A DNA stretch of 53,727 nt from a virus: IMG/VR virus record IMGVR_UViG_3300027721_000020, positions 1 to 53,727 of that record; one strand, 5' to 3'. Both the position numbers and the translations under genes were made by a program. Position 1 is the first letter of the stretch. Each line of letters starts with the position of its first letter. Shown piece after piece: positions 2,582 to 51,466 of this stretch. Under the pieces are notes generated by a model. That model did no database searches and was not told the origin of the DNA. It saw only the letters and a list, made by a program, of their open reading frames with translations.

Positions 2582-5215
2582 ATGAAAGAAGGATTTTTTT
2601 CAGCTAAGGAAACAAGCAGTGATTCCCGTCCCGATGGGAAGGTTTACTCCTGTGTATCCTGCGGCAGGTACAAGGGATGCTACACACCGAAAATGAAAGC
2701 CTCAGGGGAGTTCAATAAGGGAATTCTAAATATAGGAAGTTTCCCTACTCAAATAGAGGACAGACGGGGAAAACATTTCCAGAATAAGGAAGGTATACTG
2801 CTTGAAAAAACATACAAGAAATTGGGAATTGACCTCCATAAAGATTGCCTCAATATATATGCCGTGAATTGTATGGGTACGGATATTCCTTCCACTTATG
2901 AGCTGGATTGTTGCAGGAAAAGTATTCTCAAAATAATTGAGACCCATAAGCCTAAAATAATAATATTGTTAGGTGAAGAGGCGCTATACTCAGTAATAGG
3001 TAATAGGTGGAAATCGGATTTAGGGAAGGTCGAAAAGTGGAGAGGCTTTACAATACCTGATCAGGATTTTAAAGCATGGGTTTGTCCTACATTCGCAATT
3101 AAAACGATTATAGAGGCTAAATATGAGGTGTCTTCACTTATTTGGGAGCAGGATTTGAAAAAAGCCTTTGATTTGATTAATACTCCATTTCGATACTCTG
3201 AACCTCCTGTAATTGAATATTTAACGGAGGATAATCTTAAGGTACTCAATGCGATCAAAGATTGTGATATTGCCTTTGATTATGAGACCACGGGGTTAAA
3301 GCCGTATGCAAAAGGACACAAAATAGTTTGCGCTTCGGTAGCATACACTGAAAATAACGTGTACTCCTTTATGATGCCAACTACCAAAAATGGAATGAGG
3401 CCCTTTACAGACCTACTACTAAGACAATCTGTGGCTAAAATCGCCGCTAATATGAAATTTGAGGATACATGGTCTATTATTAAGCTGAGGACTAAAGTGG
3501 TTAAATGGCTATGGGATACTATGCAGGCTGCACATATTATTGATAATCGAAGCGGGGTAACGGGATTAAAATTTCAAACCTATGTTAATTTTGGGATTGT
3601 GGACTACGCCAGTGAGATTAGTCCGTATCTTAAGGCTAAGGATGATAAGGATGCGAATTCAATCAACCGAATAGAGGACCTGCTAGCAATACCAGGGGGA
3701 AAACACAAATTATTGCAATATGGTGCATATGATAGTATATATGAGTATCGCTTATCGGTTTTACAGCGAAAAATAATAAATACAATCCAACCTAAAGGCA
3801 GCAGGTTCGGTGCAAATGTAGTGGAAGCATATGAATTATTCCATAACGGTATTTTGGATTTGGCAAAGGCTGAACGTCAAGGACTAAGAGTAGATGAGAA
3901 TTATACGATTGAGCAAAAACAAAAATTAACAGAAAATATAGAAAATGTAGAAAATGAATTATATAATTCCAAATTCTATAAGCATTGGCGACACGTTGCA
4001 AGGTGTACTATTAATTTGGATAGTCCAGTTATGTTAGGTTCTTATCTATATGGTACCTTAGGACTTACACCTAAGAAGTATACAAAGACAGGTAAGGGAA
4101 GCACCGATGAGCAGGCACTATCAATGTTGCATATACCTGAATTAGATATGCTCCTCAAACGAAGTAAGTTAATGAACCTTAGAGATACATTCTTAGAAGG
4201 GGTGTCGAGGGAACAAGTCAATGGACGACTTCATCCTTTTTTCAATCTACACTTAGCCCGAACCTACAGAAGCTCATCTAATAACCCTAACTTTCAAAAT
4301 ATCCCAAAACGAGATACTTTAGCCATGACTACCATACGGTCTGCCATTTACCCAAGGGTAGGGCATCAATTGTTGGAAATGGATTTTTCGGGTATTGAGG
4401 TGTGTATAGCAGCATGTTATCATCAGGACCCTAACATGGTCAAATATATCAAAGACCCTAATAGTGATATGCACGGGGATATGGCTAGGCAAATATTTAT
4501 TATTGATAAGTGGGATAGAGGAAGGAGAGACCACTCATTGCTTAGAGGTGCAGCTAAAAATGGATTTGTATTTCCACAATTCTATGGAGATTATTACAAA
4601 AATAATGCGGAAAATATCTGCAATAATTGGGTAAACTTACCCTTGTCAAAATGGGATGTTTCAATGGGAATAAAATTAGATAACGGAATTACCATTGCAG
4701 AGCATCTAATTTCAAAAAAAATAAACTCCTACGATAAATTTGCTGAACATTTGAAAGGCATTGAGGCCGATTTTTGGAATAACAGGTTTCCCAGATATGC
4801 TGAATGGAAGGAGGAGCATTTTGCTACTTACTTGAAATATGGGTATATTCCCTTAAAGACAGGATTTGTTTGCAGCGGTGTAATGGGGAAAAATGATGTT
4901 TCAAACTACCCTGTACAAGGCTCTGCTTTCCATTGCCTTTTATGGACATTCTCAAAAATAACTGAGGAATTGGAAAAAAGAGATATGCAGTCAAAGGTAA
5001 TAGGACAGATACACGATGCTGTGGTTTTCGATATTCACCCTCCTGAACTAAATGCAGTATATTACTTAATGCAACAAATTGTGGTCCATTTACTCCCAAA
5101 ACATTATACGTGGATAAATGTCCCATTAGGTATTGATGCAGAGCTTTGTCCTATTGATGGAAATTGGGCGGAAAAAAAGAAATGGAAACCAGAAGTAGAT
5201 GACCTGCCTTTTTAA
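2582..5215 (+). CDS. polA: Family A DNA polymerase with N-terminal uracil-DNA glycosylase-like domain
   Basis: An 877-residue replicative polymerase; ATG 2582 is chosen because the upstream in-frame TTG lies inside the clamp gene. Residues 1-200 look like a family 4 UDG with a probable Fe-S site: CVSCGRYKGC near the N-terminus, then a Cys pair followed by KPKIIILLG. A DnaQ/PolI-type 3'-5' exonuclease starts with FDYETTG near residue 230. The polymerase part has motif A (EMDFSGIE, about 598), motif B (RGAAKNGFVFPQFYGD, about 654) and motif C (QIHDAVVFD, about 808). Motif C reads HDA where most family A enzymes have HDE. A UDG fused to phage PolA is known from other phages (SPO1-like). It probably works with the neighbouring clamp and clamp loader. 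Confidence 0.93.
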   Translation: MKEGFFSAKETSSDSRPDGKVYSCVSCGRYKGCYTPKMKASGEFNKGILNIGSFPTQIEDRRGKHFQNKEGILLEKTYKKLGIDLHKDCLNIYAVNCMGTDIPSTYELDCCRKSILKIIETHKPKIIILLGEEALYSVIGNRWKSDLGKVEKWRGFTIPDQDFKAWVCPTFAIKTIIEAKYEVSSLIWEQDLKKAFDLINTPFRYSEPPVIEYLTEDNLKVLNAIKDCDIAFDYETTGLKPYAKGHKIVCASVAYTENNVYSFMMPTTKNGMRPFTDLLLRQSVAKIAANMKFEDTWSIIKLRTKVVKWLWDTMQAAHIIDNRSGVTGLKFQTYVNFGIVDYASEISPYLKAKDDKDANSINRIEDLLAIPGGKHKLLQYGAYDSIYEYRLSVLQRKIINTIQPKGSRFGANVVEAYELFHNGILDLAKAERQGLRVDENYTIEQKQKLTENIENVENELYNSKFYKHWRHVARCTINLDSPVMLGSYLYGTLGLTPKKYTKTGKGSTDEQALSMLHIPELDMLLKRSKLMNLRDTFLEGVSREQVNGRLHPFFNLHLARTYRSSSNNPNFQNIPKRDTLAMTTIRSAIYPRVGHQLLEMDFSGIEVCIAACYHQDPNMVKYIKDPNSDMHGDMARQIFIIDKWDRGRRDHSLLRGAAKNGFVFPQFYGDYYKNNAENICNNWVNLPLSKWDVSMGIKLDNGITIAEHLISKKINSYDKFAEHLKGIEADFWNNRFPRYAEWKEEHFATYLKYGYIPLKTGFVCSGVMGKNDVSNYPVQGSAFHCLLWTFSKITEELEKRDMQSKVIGQIHDAVVFDIHPPELNAVYYLMQQIVVHLLPKHYTWINVPLGIDAELCPIDGNWAEKKKWKPEVDDLPF

Positions 5216-37530: not shown

Positions 37531-37547
37531 TAAAAACTTGCAAAATG
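37531..37547 (+). promoter_or_regulatory. Conserved translation leader, copy 1
   Basis: TAAAAACTTGCAAAATG, ending in the start codon of the first beta-helix gene. The same 17 bases recur at 37853, 47932 and 49653, and without the final G at 48112. A looser form is found at 39497-39512. Confidence 0.8.
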
Positions 37548-37796
37548 AAAACATTATTTTTAAGGAAAGTAGAGCGCAATAACAGCTGGTACGGGTTTGA
37601 ATACACAAATTTATCCGAATTAACCCAAGAATTAAAAAGTAGGAATATAATCATAGGTAGTAATTGTACAATAGGTGATTATTGTTCGTTAAACGATAAT
37701 TGTATATTGGAAGATAATTGTGTATTAGGAACTTATTGTGAAGTAGGGGAAGGCTGTAAATTAGGACCCCACTCCTATATTAAAAGGCCAGACTAA
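37545..37796 (+). CDS. Cysteine-ladder left-handed beta-helix protein 1
   Basis: An 83-residue protein. After a 35-residue head (MKTLFLRKVERN...) it has hexapeptide repeats of the left-handed parallel beta-helix type, [ILV]-G/x-x-x-C-x. Cys occurs at residues 41, 47, 53, 59, 65 and 71, exactly every sixth position. In LpxA-type helices this position is a small inward-facing residue, so the Cys side chains would stack inside the helix. With about two coils it is very short and lacks any acetyltransferase catalytic part. It is the first gene of the plus arm and paralogous to the next gene, sharing the start MKT-FLR, head domain and leader. Function unknown. Confidence 0.75.
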   Translation: MKTLFLRKVERNNSWYGFEYTNLSELTQELKSRNIIIGSNCTIGDYCSLNDNCILEDNCVLGTYCEVGEGCKLGPHSYIKRPD

Positions 37797-37807
37797 ATTA
37801 AAAAATT

Positions 37808-37835
37808 AAATAGGCAGCTATCAAGTTGCCTATTT
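37808..37835 (+). terminator. Hairpin between the beta-helix paralogues
   Basis: AAATAGGCA (37808-37816) pairs with TGCCTATTT (37827-37835) over a 10-base loop. Only short T runs follow, so it may be a weak terminator or an mRNA processing or stability element that separates the two early genes. Confidence 0.55.
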
Positions 37836-37852
37836 GTTTCACTTTTAACATT

Positions 37853-37869
37853 TAAAAACTTGCAAAATG
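37853..37869 (+). promoter_or_regulatory. Conserved translation leader, copy 2
   Basis: TAAAAACTTGCAAAATG, identical to the leader of the first paralogue and ending in the start codon at 37867. Confidence 0.8.
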
Positions 37870-38193
37870 AAAACAATATTCCTAAGATCAACAGAAAATG
37901 AATTATTAAGCTTCTCTTATTCAGAAATAAATGAATTGGCAATTGAATTAAAAAAAAGAGATATACATATTGATAATACCTGTGTATTGGGAGATTTTTG
38001 TGAGATTGGATATGGTTGTATATTATTCCCACATTGTGAATTAGCATATGGTTGCTCATTAGGAGACCATTGCATACTTTGGGGTGATTGTGTTTTGGGA
38101 GAACATTGTACTTTTGGTGACCACTGTACTGTGGAACAATATCGTACAATGGAAGGCTTTCAAACATTTGGTAATTACTATCATTTTATTTAA
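37867..38193 (+). CDS. Cysteine-ladder left-handed beta-helix protein 2
   Basis: A 108-residue paralogue of the protein encoded at 37545. Residues 1-36 form the shared head (MKTIFLR, then a helix). Hexapeptide repeats follow with nine Cys at residues 39, 45, 51, 57, 63, 69, 75, 81 and 87, strictly every six residues. His or acidic residues frequently precede each Cys (FPHC, GDHC, GEHC). That gives about three helical coils with cysteines at all interior small-residue positions. A metal-binding or redox role, or simple core packing, are all possible. No enzyme motif is present. It probably arose by tandem duplication including the leader. Confidence 0.75.
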   Translation: MKTIFLRSTENELLSFSYSEINELAIELKKRDIHIDNTCVLGDFCEIGYGCILFPHCELAYGCSLGDHCILWGDCVLGEHCTFGDHCTVEQYRTMEGFQTFGNYYHFI

Positions 38194-47931: not shown

Positions 47932-47948
47932 TAAAAACTTGCAAAATG
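47932..47948 (+). promoter_or_regulatory. Conserved translation leader, copy 3
   Basis: TAAAAACTTGCAAAATG ending in the start codon at 47946. Confidence 0.8.
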
Positions 47949-48441: not shown

Positions 48442-48819
48442 ATGTACACGATAACAAAAGAATTTGAATTTTCAGCAAGTCATCAATTACTGTACCTAGC
48501 AGAAGGGCATCCTTGCAGCAGGCTTCATGGACATAATTATAGGATACGAATTGAGTGCAAAAATGCTGTTTTGAATAAAGCGGGGTTTGTACTTGATTAC
48601 CATGAATTAGAAGGTATTAAGACTTGGTTGAATGAAATGATTGACCATGAACACTTAAATAACCTAATGGAAGAAAATCCTACCGCTGAGAATATAGCAA
48701 CTATGATTTACCGGTATGTAAAGCACACATTGAAAATTTGGCAAATTTCTGCCGTAGAAGTGTCCGAAACTCCTAAAACAAATTGTCGATATGAGCCAGA
48801 TTATAATACCAAGTTATAG
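48442..48819 (+). CDS. queD: 6-carboxytetrahydropterin synthase
   Basis: A 125-residue T-fold enzyme. It makes 6-carboxytetrahydropterin from dihydroneopterin triphosphate, step 2 of 7-deazaguanine synthesis. Zinc ligands are H14, H29 and H31 (LHGHNY). Catalytic residues are C25 and the D68-H69 pair in IDHEHLN, with the pterin-binding Glu in VSET (E109). Its 3' end overlaps queE by 29 bp. FolE, encoded at 50885, supplies the substrate. Confidence 0.93.
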   Translation: MYTITKEFEFSASHQLLYLAEGHPCSRLHGHNYRIRIECKNAVLNKAGFVLDYHELEGIKTWLNEMIDHEHLNNLMEENPTAENIATMIYRYVKHTLKIWQISAVEVSETPKTNCRYEPDYNTKL

Positions 48820-49540
48820 CATTAATAATACAAATTTCGGAAACCCCGATAATTGTTTGCGAATTTCCGAGTTTTTTTGTGATACTATACAAGGAGAGGG
48901 GGTAAATATAGGAATGCCCGCTGCATTCCTTAGATTACAAGGATGCACACTAAATTGCAACTATTGCGATACAAAGGATATTTGGAAATTCGGCAGTGAT
49001 TACTCCTTCACCTACTTATTTGAATTGATGGAAACGTATCATCTCATCCCCAAATTAAGACAGGGAGTCCACTTGGTTATTACAGGAGGCAGTCCTCTGT
49101 TACAACAAAAAAACCTTATTTTATTTTTCAATAAATTTTCTAATAAATATAAATTCACTCCATATATTGAAATAGAAAACGAATGTATAATAATTCCACA
49201 TGAGGAATTAATTAATATGGTCTCGTGCTGGAATAATAGTCCTAAATTAAAATCAAGTGGTATGAAACCCCAAAATATAGTGGTGGAGTATATGCGGTAT
49301 TTACACAATAGTTGGTTTAAATTTGTTGTATCCTCGCAAGAGGATTGGATTGAAATAGCGGAAAGTTATTTGAATACAGGGTTAATTAATAAAGAGCAGG
49401 TAATATTAATGCCTAAAGGTGCTAATTTAGCTGAATTAGAAAAAAATAGGCAGCTAACTGTGGAATTAGCTATTCAAAACGGAGTGCGGTACTGCACACG
49501 TGAACACGTGGTTTTGTGGGACTTAGCAACGGGGGTTTAA
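48791..49540 (+). CDS. queE: 7-carboxy-7-deazaguanine synthase (radical SAM)
   Basis: A 249-residue radical SAM enzyme that converts carboxytetrahydropterin to 7-carboxy-7-deazaguanine. The Fe-S cluster motif is GCTLNCNYCDT (C52, C56, C59), after the typical QGEGVNIGMPAAFLRLQG. The SAM-binding GGE motif reads GGSP here (99-102), with Ser in place of Glu. The start overlaps queD. No QueC that would turn CDG into preQ0 is visible in the genome, so CDG may be the end product or the host may complete it. Confidence 0.92.
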   Translation: MSQIIIPSYSINNTNFGNPDNCLRISEFFCDTIQGEGVNIGMPAAFLRLQGCTLNCNYCDTKDIWKFGSDYSFTYLFELMETYHLIPKLRQGVHLVITGGSPLLQQKNLILFFNKFSNKYKFTPYIEIENECIIIPHEELINMVSCWNNSPKLKSSGMKPQNIVVEYMRYLHNSWFKFVVSSQEDWIEIAESYLNTGLINKEQVILMPKGANLAELEKNRQLTVELAIQNGVRYCTREHVVLWDLATGV

Positions 49541-50009: not shown

Positions 50010-50834
50010 ATGAAAGTAGCAGATTTGAAAAAAACCGCAAAAGAATTAAATGACATTCTTTTCGATGACAAAACCAAAATCAATGTGAATCAAAGCCAAT
50101 CGAGCTTAGAAAACCTTGTTAAAGAAGCAGCAACCTTACTGGATGAGGGAGAAGAAGAGGAGCTCACCGCCATAGCTAGGAGAGTAATCGCAGAATTAAA
50201 AGAAAATAAGGAAGAGGTTGACGAGGAAGAGGTTGACGAGGAAGAGGTTGACGAGGAAGAGGTTGACGAGGAAGAGGTTGACGAGGAAGAGGTAATTGCG
50301 ACTAAAAAAGTAACTAAGGTTCCTGTACCATCACCAGTTACCAAAATTAACAAAACTGAGCCTTTGCCAGAGGACAAAGAAGCAGATATGAGTTTTGATG
50401 ACTTGACCTTGCAAGAACAAGTGCAAGCCACAGCTGATTTATTGGAACTTAAAAAACTTGTGAAGTCAGAGGAAACCTTCAAATACCTAAGACATTGCAT
50501 AGGTATTCAAAAAGATGCAAAAAAATTAAAAACATCTATGTTATTAGCCATCAAGGCGGAGCAAGCTACACCGGTAAAGGCAGCATCTAAACCTGCACCT
50601 GTTAAAAAAGAAGTAGTAAAAAATACCGGTGATAAACCAGAAAGTTGTGAATCGGTTGCATCGAGATTAGTCGCAAGCAAAGCCACAGAAGCTGTTTGGC
50701 TCAGTACTTTTACCGCTATTTATAAGGCAAAAGGAAAAACGGACACTGCTTTCATCCAAAAAAGAATTGATATATACAAAGAGATTGCACTTAGAAAGGC
50801 CGGACTTTCAGTGGTAAAGCCCGCAAAAAAATAG
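50010..50834 (+). CDS. Acidic repeat protein of unknown function
   Basis: A 274-residue protein in four parts: a helical N-terminal domain (about 1-68), an acidic EEVDE repeat tract (about 69-94), a Pro/Thr/Lys linker, and a helical C-terminal domain with basic linkers (PVKAASKPAPVKKEVVK). The repeat is encoded by five identical 15-base units. It has its own leader region and terminators on both sides. The architecture suggests a scaffolding or DNA/protein-bridging factor. No family is recognised. Confidence 0.6.
   Translation: MKVADLKKTAKELNDILFDDKTKINVNQSQSSLENLVKEAATLLDEGEEEELTAIARRVIAELKENKEEVDEEEVDEEEVDEEEVDEEEVDEEEVIATKKVTKVPVPSPVTKINKTEPLPEDKEADMSFDDLTLQEQVQATADLLELKKLVKSEETFKYLRHCIGIQKDAKKLKTSMLLAIKAEQATPVKAASKPAPVKKEVVKNTGDKPESCESVASRLVASKATEAVWLSTFTAIYKAKGKTDTAFIQKRIDIYKEIALRKAGLSVVKPAKK
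50214..50288 (+). repeat. Five 15-bp tandem repeats
   Basis: Five perfect units of GAGGTTGACGAGGAA, coding for EVDEE. Perfect identity suggests recent expansion and possible length variation between isolates. Confidence 0.95.
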
Positions 50835-50884: not shown

Positions 50885-51466
50885 ATGAATAATAATTGTG
50901 TAATAAAAGATCAATCAGATCAAATCATGCAAACATTACTTTCCACCATATTACAATATATAGGAGACAATCCAAATAGAGAAGGTCTCCAAGATACACC
51001 AAAACGTGTAATAAAAAGTTGGAATGAGCTTTACTGTGGGTATTCACAATCCCCCGAAAGTATGCTAACCACATTTGCTGAGGATACCTCCGACCAAATA
51101 GTAGTTCTAAAGGACATTGAGCTATACTCCATGTGTGAACACCATATGTTACCATTCTTTGGAAAAGCCCATGTAGCATATTTACCTGATGGTAAAATAA
51201 TCGGTATTTCAAAATTAGCTAGGTTAGTTGATATTTACGCCCGTAGGTTGCAGATACAGGAACGTATAGGTGACCAAGTTACCTCTGCATTGATGCAATA
51301 CCTAAAGCCAAAAGGAGCTGCTTGCATAATTGAAGCCTCTCATATGTGTATGAGAATGAGAGGGGTTTCAAAACAACATTCAAAAATGATGACTTCAAGC
51401 ATGAAAGGAGTATTCCTGACTGATACAAATTTGGAAAGTAAACTGTTAACCATGATCTCATTATGA
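50885..51466 (+). CDS. folE: GTP cyclohydrolase I
   Basis: A 193-residue enzyme, GTP to dihydroneopterin triphosphate, the first step of 7-deazaguanine synthesis. Zinc ligands are C84 and H87 in [10 protein letters not shown] and C155 in HMCMRMRGV. The [25 protein letters not shown] block and the [13 protein letters not shown] end are highly typical. It overlaps the next start by four bases, beginning the tight operon folE, QueD-like, radical SAM, glycosyltransferase, dpdA, clamp. Confidence 0.95.

What the first reader, a model, noticed from the sequence alone, without database searches (positions are those of the whole stretch)
37545..38193. Paired mini beta-helix proteins with a cysteine at exactly every sixth residue
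Two tandem paralogues at the head of the early arm have six (residues 41-71) and nine (39-87) cysteines at strict six-residue spacing within hexapeptide repeats of the left-handed beta-helix type. This position points inward in LpxA-like folds, so the thiols would form three continuous internal ladders. The proteins are tiny, lack an enzymatic part, and share a head domain (MKT-FLR), the same leader and a separating hairpin. A thiol-lined rod could bind metal, sense redox state, or mimic a host beta-helix or DNA, as pentapeptide-repeat proteins do for gyrase.
Basis: partly seen in the sequence, partly recalled or inferred. Interest (0 to 1): 0.72.

Follow-up and report, generated by a model that had tools for sequence, protein, structure and literature searches.

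The report
Phage beta-helix proteins with cysteine core
A bacterial virus carries two very small rod-shaped proteins with a cysteine at exactly every sixth residue; they belong to an undescribed family of repeat rods found in phages, whose cysteines most likely pack the core of the rod rather than do chemistry.

Summary
ORF A (37545-37796, 83 aa) has all 6 of its Cys, and ORF B (37867-38193, 108 aa) all 9, at strict six-residue spacing. Both match Pfam Hexapep above its cut-off. The model of B superposes on left-handed beta-helix enzymes at 2.1-2.4 A over 82-86 residues. The Cys sits at the small inward position of the hexapeptide.

They are short, capless members of a phage family (phrog_5353, function unknown): head, hexapeptide solenoid, usually a C-terminal cap. 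Relatives carry 5-40 Cys hexads in unbroken runs. Others carry Val, Ala or Thr at the same position, and one Flavobacterium phage member mixes Cys, Val and Ser. So a thiol is not needed by the fold or by the family as a whole. In B it is kept in 9 of 9 hexads although outward residues have drifted to 14% identity.

The cap follows four kinds of beta-solenoid in phage contigs (31 of 35 loci) and matches no Pfam family (0 of 16).

Best reading: early accessory binding rods with a structural Cys core, perhaps acting against a host enzyme. The target is unknown; metal or redox roles are unsupported.

The parts
37531..37564 (+). leader and start of ORF A, direct repeat of 37853-37886
   Evidence: the repeat finder D2, 91% identical; core AAACTTGCAAAATG also at 47935 and 49656 exact, 48115 with one mismatch
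37545..37796 (+). ORF A, 83 aa: head (about residues 1-34) plus 6 Cys hexads, no cap
   Evidence: Pfam Hexapep 56 bits against cut-off 27; phrog_5353 E 7.6e-8
37665..37757 (+). Cys array of ORF A, Cys 41 to 71, six-residue spacing
37807..37836 (+). hairpin between the two genes, terminator-like
   Evidence: 13 pairs, loop 4, T-rich tail
37853..37886 (+). leader and start of ORF B
37867..38193 (+). ORF B, 108 aa: head (about residues 1-32) plus 9 Cys hexads, no cap
   Evidence: Pfam Hexapep 34.4 bits against cut-off 27; model m01dd89afce70
37981..38127 (+). Cys array of ORF B, Cys 39 to 87, six-residue spacing

Best explanation
A and B are two short, capless paralogues of a phage family of beta-solenoid binding proteins. 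Each is a beta-beta-alpha head that starts a left-handed beta-helix of hexapeptides (C-x-[LIV]-G-x-x). Shown by sequence and model: the repeat, the head, the kinship, and the left-handed fold of B. Inferred from the known left-handed beta-helix register: the Cys takes the small inward position, so the thiols line the core as stacked, mostly hydrophobic packing residues in a reduced cytosol; they neither catalyse nor carry metal. Inferred, weaker: the protein is made early, and its outward face (strongly drifted between repeats) binds a host or phage macromolecule, most plausibly an enzyme of host DNA metabolism or defence that it blocks or decoys, in the way that pentapeptide-repeat solenoids occupy gyrase. 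Longer relatives add a C-terminal cap that probably joins subunits; A and B lack it and so probably act alone, with each other or by stacking. My odds: fold 0.85, Cys mainly structural 0.7, anti-host binding role 0.35.
For: Fold: Pfam Hexapep above cut-off for both. B matches LpxA chains at E down to 1.8e-8, its Cys in register with the small position. The B model (head pLDDT 84-89, repeats 55-85) superposes at 2.1-2.4 A over 82-86 residues on PglD, serine acetyltransferase, LpxD and LpxA. Cys as one choice among small residues: Val, Ala or Thr at the same position in Leptospira plasmids and other phages, and a Cys/Val/Ser mixture in the Flavobacterium phage V156 member; Cys is 14% of this position in cellular enzymes. 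Head-repeat-cap architecture. Phage restriction: the cap profile matches 1 of 296 Bacteroidota-phylum genomes, marginally (E 9.9e-4). Binding-protein reading: no NCBIfam enzyme model comes near its cut-off for A or B; one cap follows four kinds of solenoid, including pentapeptide repeats. Accessory status: 0 of 80 terminase-related loci carry any such array. Coding: over 70 aligned codons A and B have 15 identical, 14 synonymous and 41 nonsynonymous; all 6 paired Cys are kept, 2 of them by different codons.
Against: The Cys is held more strictly than a free small residue would be: 9 of 9 in B while outward residues are 14% identical between repeats. Non-Cys arrays with outward identity up to 0.30 (16 arrays) agree at this position in 0.18 to 1.00 of pairs, 12 of the 16 below 0.8. 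That leaves room for a thiol role; mutational isolation (TGY is one step only from Ser among the usual small residues) may explain part of it. No target, expression or phenotype is known. Neighbours of relatives are ordinary early phage genes (44 Pfam families among 102 neighbours; Dam in 2, cytosine methylase in 1, Mom in 1), which only suggests a role. The family is not uniformly acidic, against general DNA mimicry. Of 9 proteins none matched PADLOC except a spurious one-residue Cas6 hit in L142.
Confidence: 0.45

Rival explanations
1. Thiol-lined rod with a chemical job: the three inward Cys columns bind soft metal ions (Cu(I), Zn, Cd) or act as a redox sink during infection.
For: 15 of 15 hexads of the two Cys runs are kept despite strong drift elsewhere; Cys-type relatives reach 39 and 40 consecutive Cys (L014, L142); Cys types with at least three different heads exist.
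Against: Relatives with the same head and cap use Val, Ala, Thr; the Flavobacterium phage member mixes Cys, Val, Ser. The Cys column sits in a tightly packed core by the known fold. In the Cys-blind cap search only 1 of the 13 loci matching the hexapeptide pattern was of the Cys type.
Confidence: 0.12
2. DNA-mimic or gyrase/defence inhibitor in the strict sense of the pentapeptide-repeat proteins MfpA and Qnr.
For: B is acidic (net -10, pI 4.8); phage caps are shared with pentapeptide proteins and in Leptospira plasmid pLiSL34 both kinds are neighbours. Pentapeptide solenoids mimic DNA and dimerise by C-terminal helices (PMC10886550, section 13 read).
Against: A is only -2; relatives range to +3. 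A and B have no cap to dimerise. No target evidence.
Confidence: 0.2
3. Cys purity is only a by-product of repeat amplification: 18-base units duplicate and are homogenised, and whichever small residue the founder had fills the array.
For: Ala-pure and Val-pure arrays exist (L380, L394, L381, L009b); long arrays have repeat DNA identity up to 0.91 (L160).
Against: A and B repeats are only 0.46 and 0.52 identical at DNA level, outward codons 0.32 and 0.41, so they are not recent copies, yet Cys is unbroken and uses both codons in B.
Confidence: 0.2
4. Degenerate acyltransferase fragments without function.
For: They score as hexapeptide proteins and are short.
Against: Conserved head and starts, leaders, no stops, Cys kept; relatives with the same architecture in many unrelated phages.
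Confidence: 0.04

Closest known systems
phrog_5353 (PHROGs v4, unknown function; matched by Flavobacterium phage V156 protein ASD52775.1)
   Same: Same head, hexapeptide solenoid; A E 7.6e-8, B E 4.7e-4, V156 protein E 9e-75.
   Different: The fuller relatives have a C-terminal cap (phrog_32789-like); A and B have none. The V156 member mixes Cys, Val and Ser at the small position.
LbH acyltransferases (LpxA, LpxD, PglD, serine acetyltransferase; Pfam PF00132)
   Same: Hexapeptide repeat, predicted left-handed beta-helix.
   Different: No catalytic or acyl-binding part, 2-4 coils only; NCBIfam enzyme models far below cut-off (30.4 and 34.7 against 207 bits); Cys in every hexad.
Pentapeptide-repeat proteins MfpA and Qnr
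   Same: Small beta-solenoid with small and large inward residues; possible binding by the outward face; some phage pentapeptide proteins share the cap.
   Different: Five-residue right-handed square helix (recalled); A and B do not match Pfam pentapeptide models.
Bactofilins
   Same: Triangular beta-helix without enzyme; the L222 model superposes on 6rib and 2n3d at 2.2-2.3 A.
   Different: Right-handed (recalled); that hand is probably a model artefact for near-perfect repeats, as reported for AlphaFold2 (PMC12775518, passages seen). B came out left-handed.

Membership tests
Hexapeptide-repeat proteins (PF00132) | Hexapep profile above curated cut-off | tested here: met
   A 56 bits, B 34.4 bits, cut-off 27
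Hexapeptide-repeat proteins (PF00132) | Left-handed beta-helix fold | tested here: inconclusive
   B model left-handed by 2.1-2.4 A fits over 82-86 residues, but repeat pLDDT is 55-85 and the relative L222 was modelled with the opposite hand; A was not modelled
LpxA/LpxD/NeuD-type acyltransferases | Full-length enzyme model above NCBIfam cut-off | tested here: not met
   Best for A 30.4 against 207 bits, for B 34.7 against 207
phrog_5353 | Profile match including the head | tested here: met
   A residues 14-80 E 7.6e-8, B residues 29-88 E 4.7e-4; head conserved in an alignment with the V156 member. B's match is mostly repeat
phrog_5353 | C-terminal cap (phrog_32789-like) | tested here: not met
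   A ends 12 residues after its last Cys, B 21 residues after its last Cys, neither with the cap motif; no cap match for A or B in PHROGs
Pentapeptide-repeat proteins (PF00805) | Pentapeptide profile match | tested here: not met
   No such match for A or B at E up to 1
Metal-thiolate proteins (metallothionein-like) | Metal binding by clustered Cys | not testable with these tools
   Needs protein and metal analysis

The most novel reading that the evidence does not exclude
Phages of several lineages have independently settled on an all-Cys core in their beta-solenoids, and this is functional: a rod with three continuous thiol columns that holds soft metal or buffers thiol-disulfide state in the infected cell, while uncapped members such as A and B stack end to end into longer thiol-lined rods.
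Probability: 0.1. Interest if true: 0.85.

Novelty: new variant of a known kind. Interest (0 to 1): 0.5.

Why it matters
The pair opens a view on a modular phage family that no Pfam model names as such: a small head, a beta-solenoid of variable length, and a cap that is shared by hexapeptide, pentapeptide and two other repeat types. If these rods bind host enzymes, they are a ready source of inhibitors whose length and surface phages tune by adding repeats. The all-Cys core asks a clean question of protein design: why one lineage holds Cys where others use Val, Ala or Thr. It also gives small test cases for AlphaFold's handedness problem with repetitive beta-helices.

Tried and rejected
Close relatives of A and B by peptide patterns in IMG/VR: none. 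A five-member alignment was too diverse to search with. The first Cys pattern scan had the wrong spacing (16 instead of 18 bases); its 89 stretches are not counted. The 5-Cys L/I/V-type scan gave 23 stretches, about ten genuine by eye.

Similarity between the cap of the window's relatives and the ending of the C-S-F-G arrays (GCF motif) is by eye only: the profile comparison does not support it (hhalign probability 0.6%). The cap profile has no convincing solved relative (best E 0.13). The viral structure library gave one hit below E 0.001 with poor TM-scores.

General DNA mimicry as the family function was set aside because charges vary in sign. A conserved slot beside the terminase genes was set aside: 0 of 80 related loci (670 kb, many of them short contigs) hold any of the repeat patterns.

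Paper searches for a description of such proteins (listings only) found none; the library holds open-licence papers only.

Full report
What is there. The window is an IMG/VR virus record. Its terminase large subunit matches 706 phage records, those of Flavobacterium psychrophilum phages best (58.6% identity). At the start of the rightward arm, divergent from the terminase genes, lie ORF A (37545-37796, 83 aa) and ORF B (37867-38193, 108 aa). A has 6 Cys and B 9, all of them at six-residue spacing; 0 of 200,000 shuffles of each sequence reach this. The genes share a 34-base stretch over leader and start (91%) and are parted by a terminator-like hairpin at 37807-37836. The leader core recurs at three other places in the same arm (47935 and 49656 exact, 48115 with one mismatch), so it belongs to the phage's early genes in general.

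Fold. Both proteins match the Hexapep model above its cut-off. B matches solved LpxA and LpxD chains by sequence (best E 1.8e-8), its Cys falling on the small position of the hexapeptide. That this position and the aliphatic one two residues later point inward in left-handed beta-helices is established knowledge, recalled here; no coordinates of the model were inspected. The AlphaFold2 model of B (7 sequences, mean pLDDT 67.9; head 84-89, repeats 55-85, last 19 residues below 50) superposes at 2.1-2.4 A over 82-86 residues on PglD, serine acetyltransferase, LpxD and LpxA. The model of a long relative, L222 (15 Cys hexads, mean pLDDT 70.5), is also a triangular beta-helix, but fits right-handed bactofilins at 2.2-2.3 A and left-handed enzymes only at about 11-13 A, so it has the opposite hand. 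AlphaFold2 is reported to favour right-handed solenoids for highly repetitive sequences (PMC12775518, passages seen), so I trust the less repetitive B more, but the hand is not proven. The head is predicted as two strands and a helix.

Relatives. tblastn in phage records gave two human-gut phage proteins with the same head, 9 and 5 Cys hexads, and a C-terminal cap (L004, L005), and the Flavobacterium phage V156 protein, a strong match of phrog_5353 (unknown function). Two Leptospira plasmids carry the same head and cap, but Val or Ala at the Cys position. One of them, L009, has five such genes in tandem, the first three without a cap; so tandem paralogues with and without cap occur elsewhere, and the window's capless pair fits that. 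Pattern scans of IMG/VR added Cys-type proteins with the window's head (L222, L232, L233, L238, L156, L160) and with other heads, among them C-S-F-G arrays of up to 40 Cys.

Is Cys special? In 21 cellular hexapeptide proteins from Bacteroidota genomes (257 hexads) Cys fills 14% of this position and the longest run is 3. With the register set only by the large hydrophobic residue, the arrays are bimodal: Cys-type arrays are nearly pure (two internal exceptions, a Val in L125 and a Ser in L158; others only at array ends), most others have no Cys at all, and three are mixed (V156 protein 4 of 16, L387 1 of 13, L396 1 of 18). Most Cys-type arrays were found by searching for Cys runs, so their purity is partly selected. 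The pair itself was flagged for its Cys; L004, L005, L222, L232 and L014 came through homology. In the Cys-blind cap search only 1 of the 13 loci that match the hexapeptide pattern is of the Cys type. The informative case is drift: in B the outward residues agree in 14% of repeat pairs, the large hydrophobic residue in 42%, the glycine position in 28%, and the Cys in 100%; in A 8, 33, 29 and 71% (6 Cys and a final Ser). Non-Cys arrays of outward identity up to 0.30 (16 arrays) agree in 18 to 100% (12 of 16 below 80%; the purer ones are L009b, L009c, L382, L372 at 86-100%); Cys arrays in the same range (12) agree in 47 to 100%, L156 being lowest because its array end is included. So Cys in the pair looks selected and not just copied. 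Part of this may be mutational: Val, Ala and Thr are one step apart, while Cys reaches only Ser among the usual small residues (from the genetic code).

The cap. In 35 of these at least 20 residues lie upstream in frame; 31 of 35 have a beta-solenoid pattern there: left-handed hexapeptides 13 (one of them Cys), V-S-G-N-A hexapeptides 10, five-residue G-G repeats 3, pentapeptides 5. Five of the ten V-S-G-N-A loci hold the same protein; counted once the figure is 27 of 31. The same patterns, asked for with one repeat more, gave 0 hits in 670 kb of terminase-related loci. No Pfam family matches any of 16 caps, and the cap profile is nearly absent from Bacteroidota chromosomes (1 of 296, E 9.9e-4). 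The cap is thus a phage module that follows solenoids of different kinds. Pentapeptide proteins such as MfpA and Qnr dimerise by C-terminal helices and use the solenoid surface to occupy gyrase (PMC10886550, section 13); the cap, predicted with two C-terminal helices at low confidence, could serve likewise.

How it most likely works. Shown: repeat, coding pattern, kinship, accessory nature. Supported: left-handed helix with inward Cys. Inferred: the thiols are core packing, because relatives of the same architecture do without them. Inferred and weaker: the outward face binds a macromolecule early in infection. Neighbours of Cys-type relatives are early phage genes (DnaB-like helicase in 2, Dam in 2, HNH in 3, cytosine methylase 1, Mom 1, of 102 neighbours scanned out of 202), and the window's own arm carries a phrog_62 helicase and preQ0-pathway genes (folE, queD and probably queE). 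This fits, but does not show, a role against host nucleic-acid enzymes or defence.

Verdict. Its thiol chemistry is not supported for the family and remains a minor possibility for the Cys lineages. The open-licence papers searched (listings) describe nothing of the kind. The find is a new variant of hexapeptide-repeat protein within an unnamed, modular phage solenoid family.

Noticed in passing
window 48442-49540 and 50885-51466: 6-pyruvoyl tetrahydropterin synthase (queD-like), a radical SAM protein in the queE position, and GTP cyclohydrolase I (folE): most of a preQ0 (7-deazaguanine) pathway, as used by some phages to modify DNA (the pathway link is recalled).
   Followed up: partly
window 37534, 37856, 47935, 48115, 49656: Leader TAAAAACTTGCAAAAT repeated at five early places; upstream of three of them (37.5, 47.9, 49.6 kb) a promoter-like TTGGAAA ... 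TTTACnnTATA is also shared.
   Followed up: partly
L008:6001-7232, L009:4172-7102, L010:2671-3207, L371-L408: One C-terminal cap module behind four kinds of beta-solenoid in phages and Leptospira plasmids; no Pfam family.
   Followed up: yes
L142:2-1206, L125:12136-13212, L157:10447-12763: C-x-F-G-x-x arrays of 13-40 hexads in which the residue before the next Cys is more variable than the rest (entropy up to 3.3 bits), as if one outward column were diversified.
   Followed up: partly
L014:92-931 and 3275-3898: Two long Cys-hexapeptide genes (39 and 27 Cys in a row) and a further capped piece on one contig.
   Followed up: no
L009:4172-7102 (Leptospira mayottensis plasmid p2): Five tandem hexapeptide genes, three without and two with a cap, Val or Ala at the small position.
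   Followed up: partly
window 50010-50834: ORF of 274 aa with a tandem acidic stretch (EEVDE repeated).
   Followed up: no
models mea5c8d68db7f (L222) and m01dd89afce70 (window B): AlphaFold2 gave opposite hands to two members of one family, a compact test case for its handedness bias.
   Followed up: no
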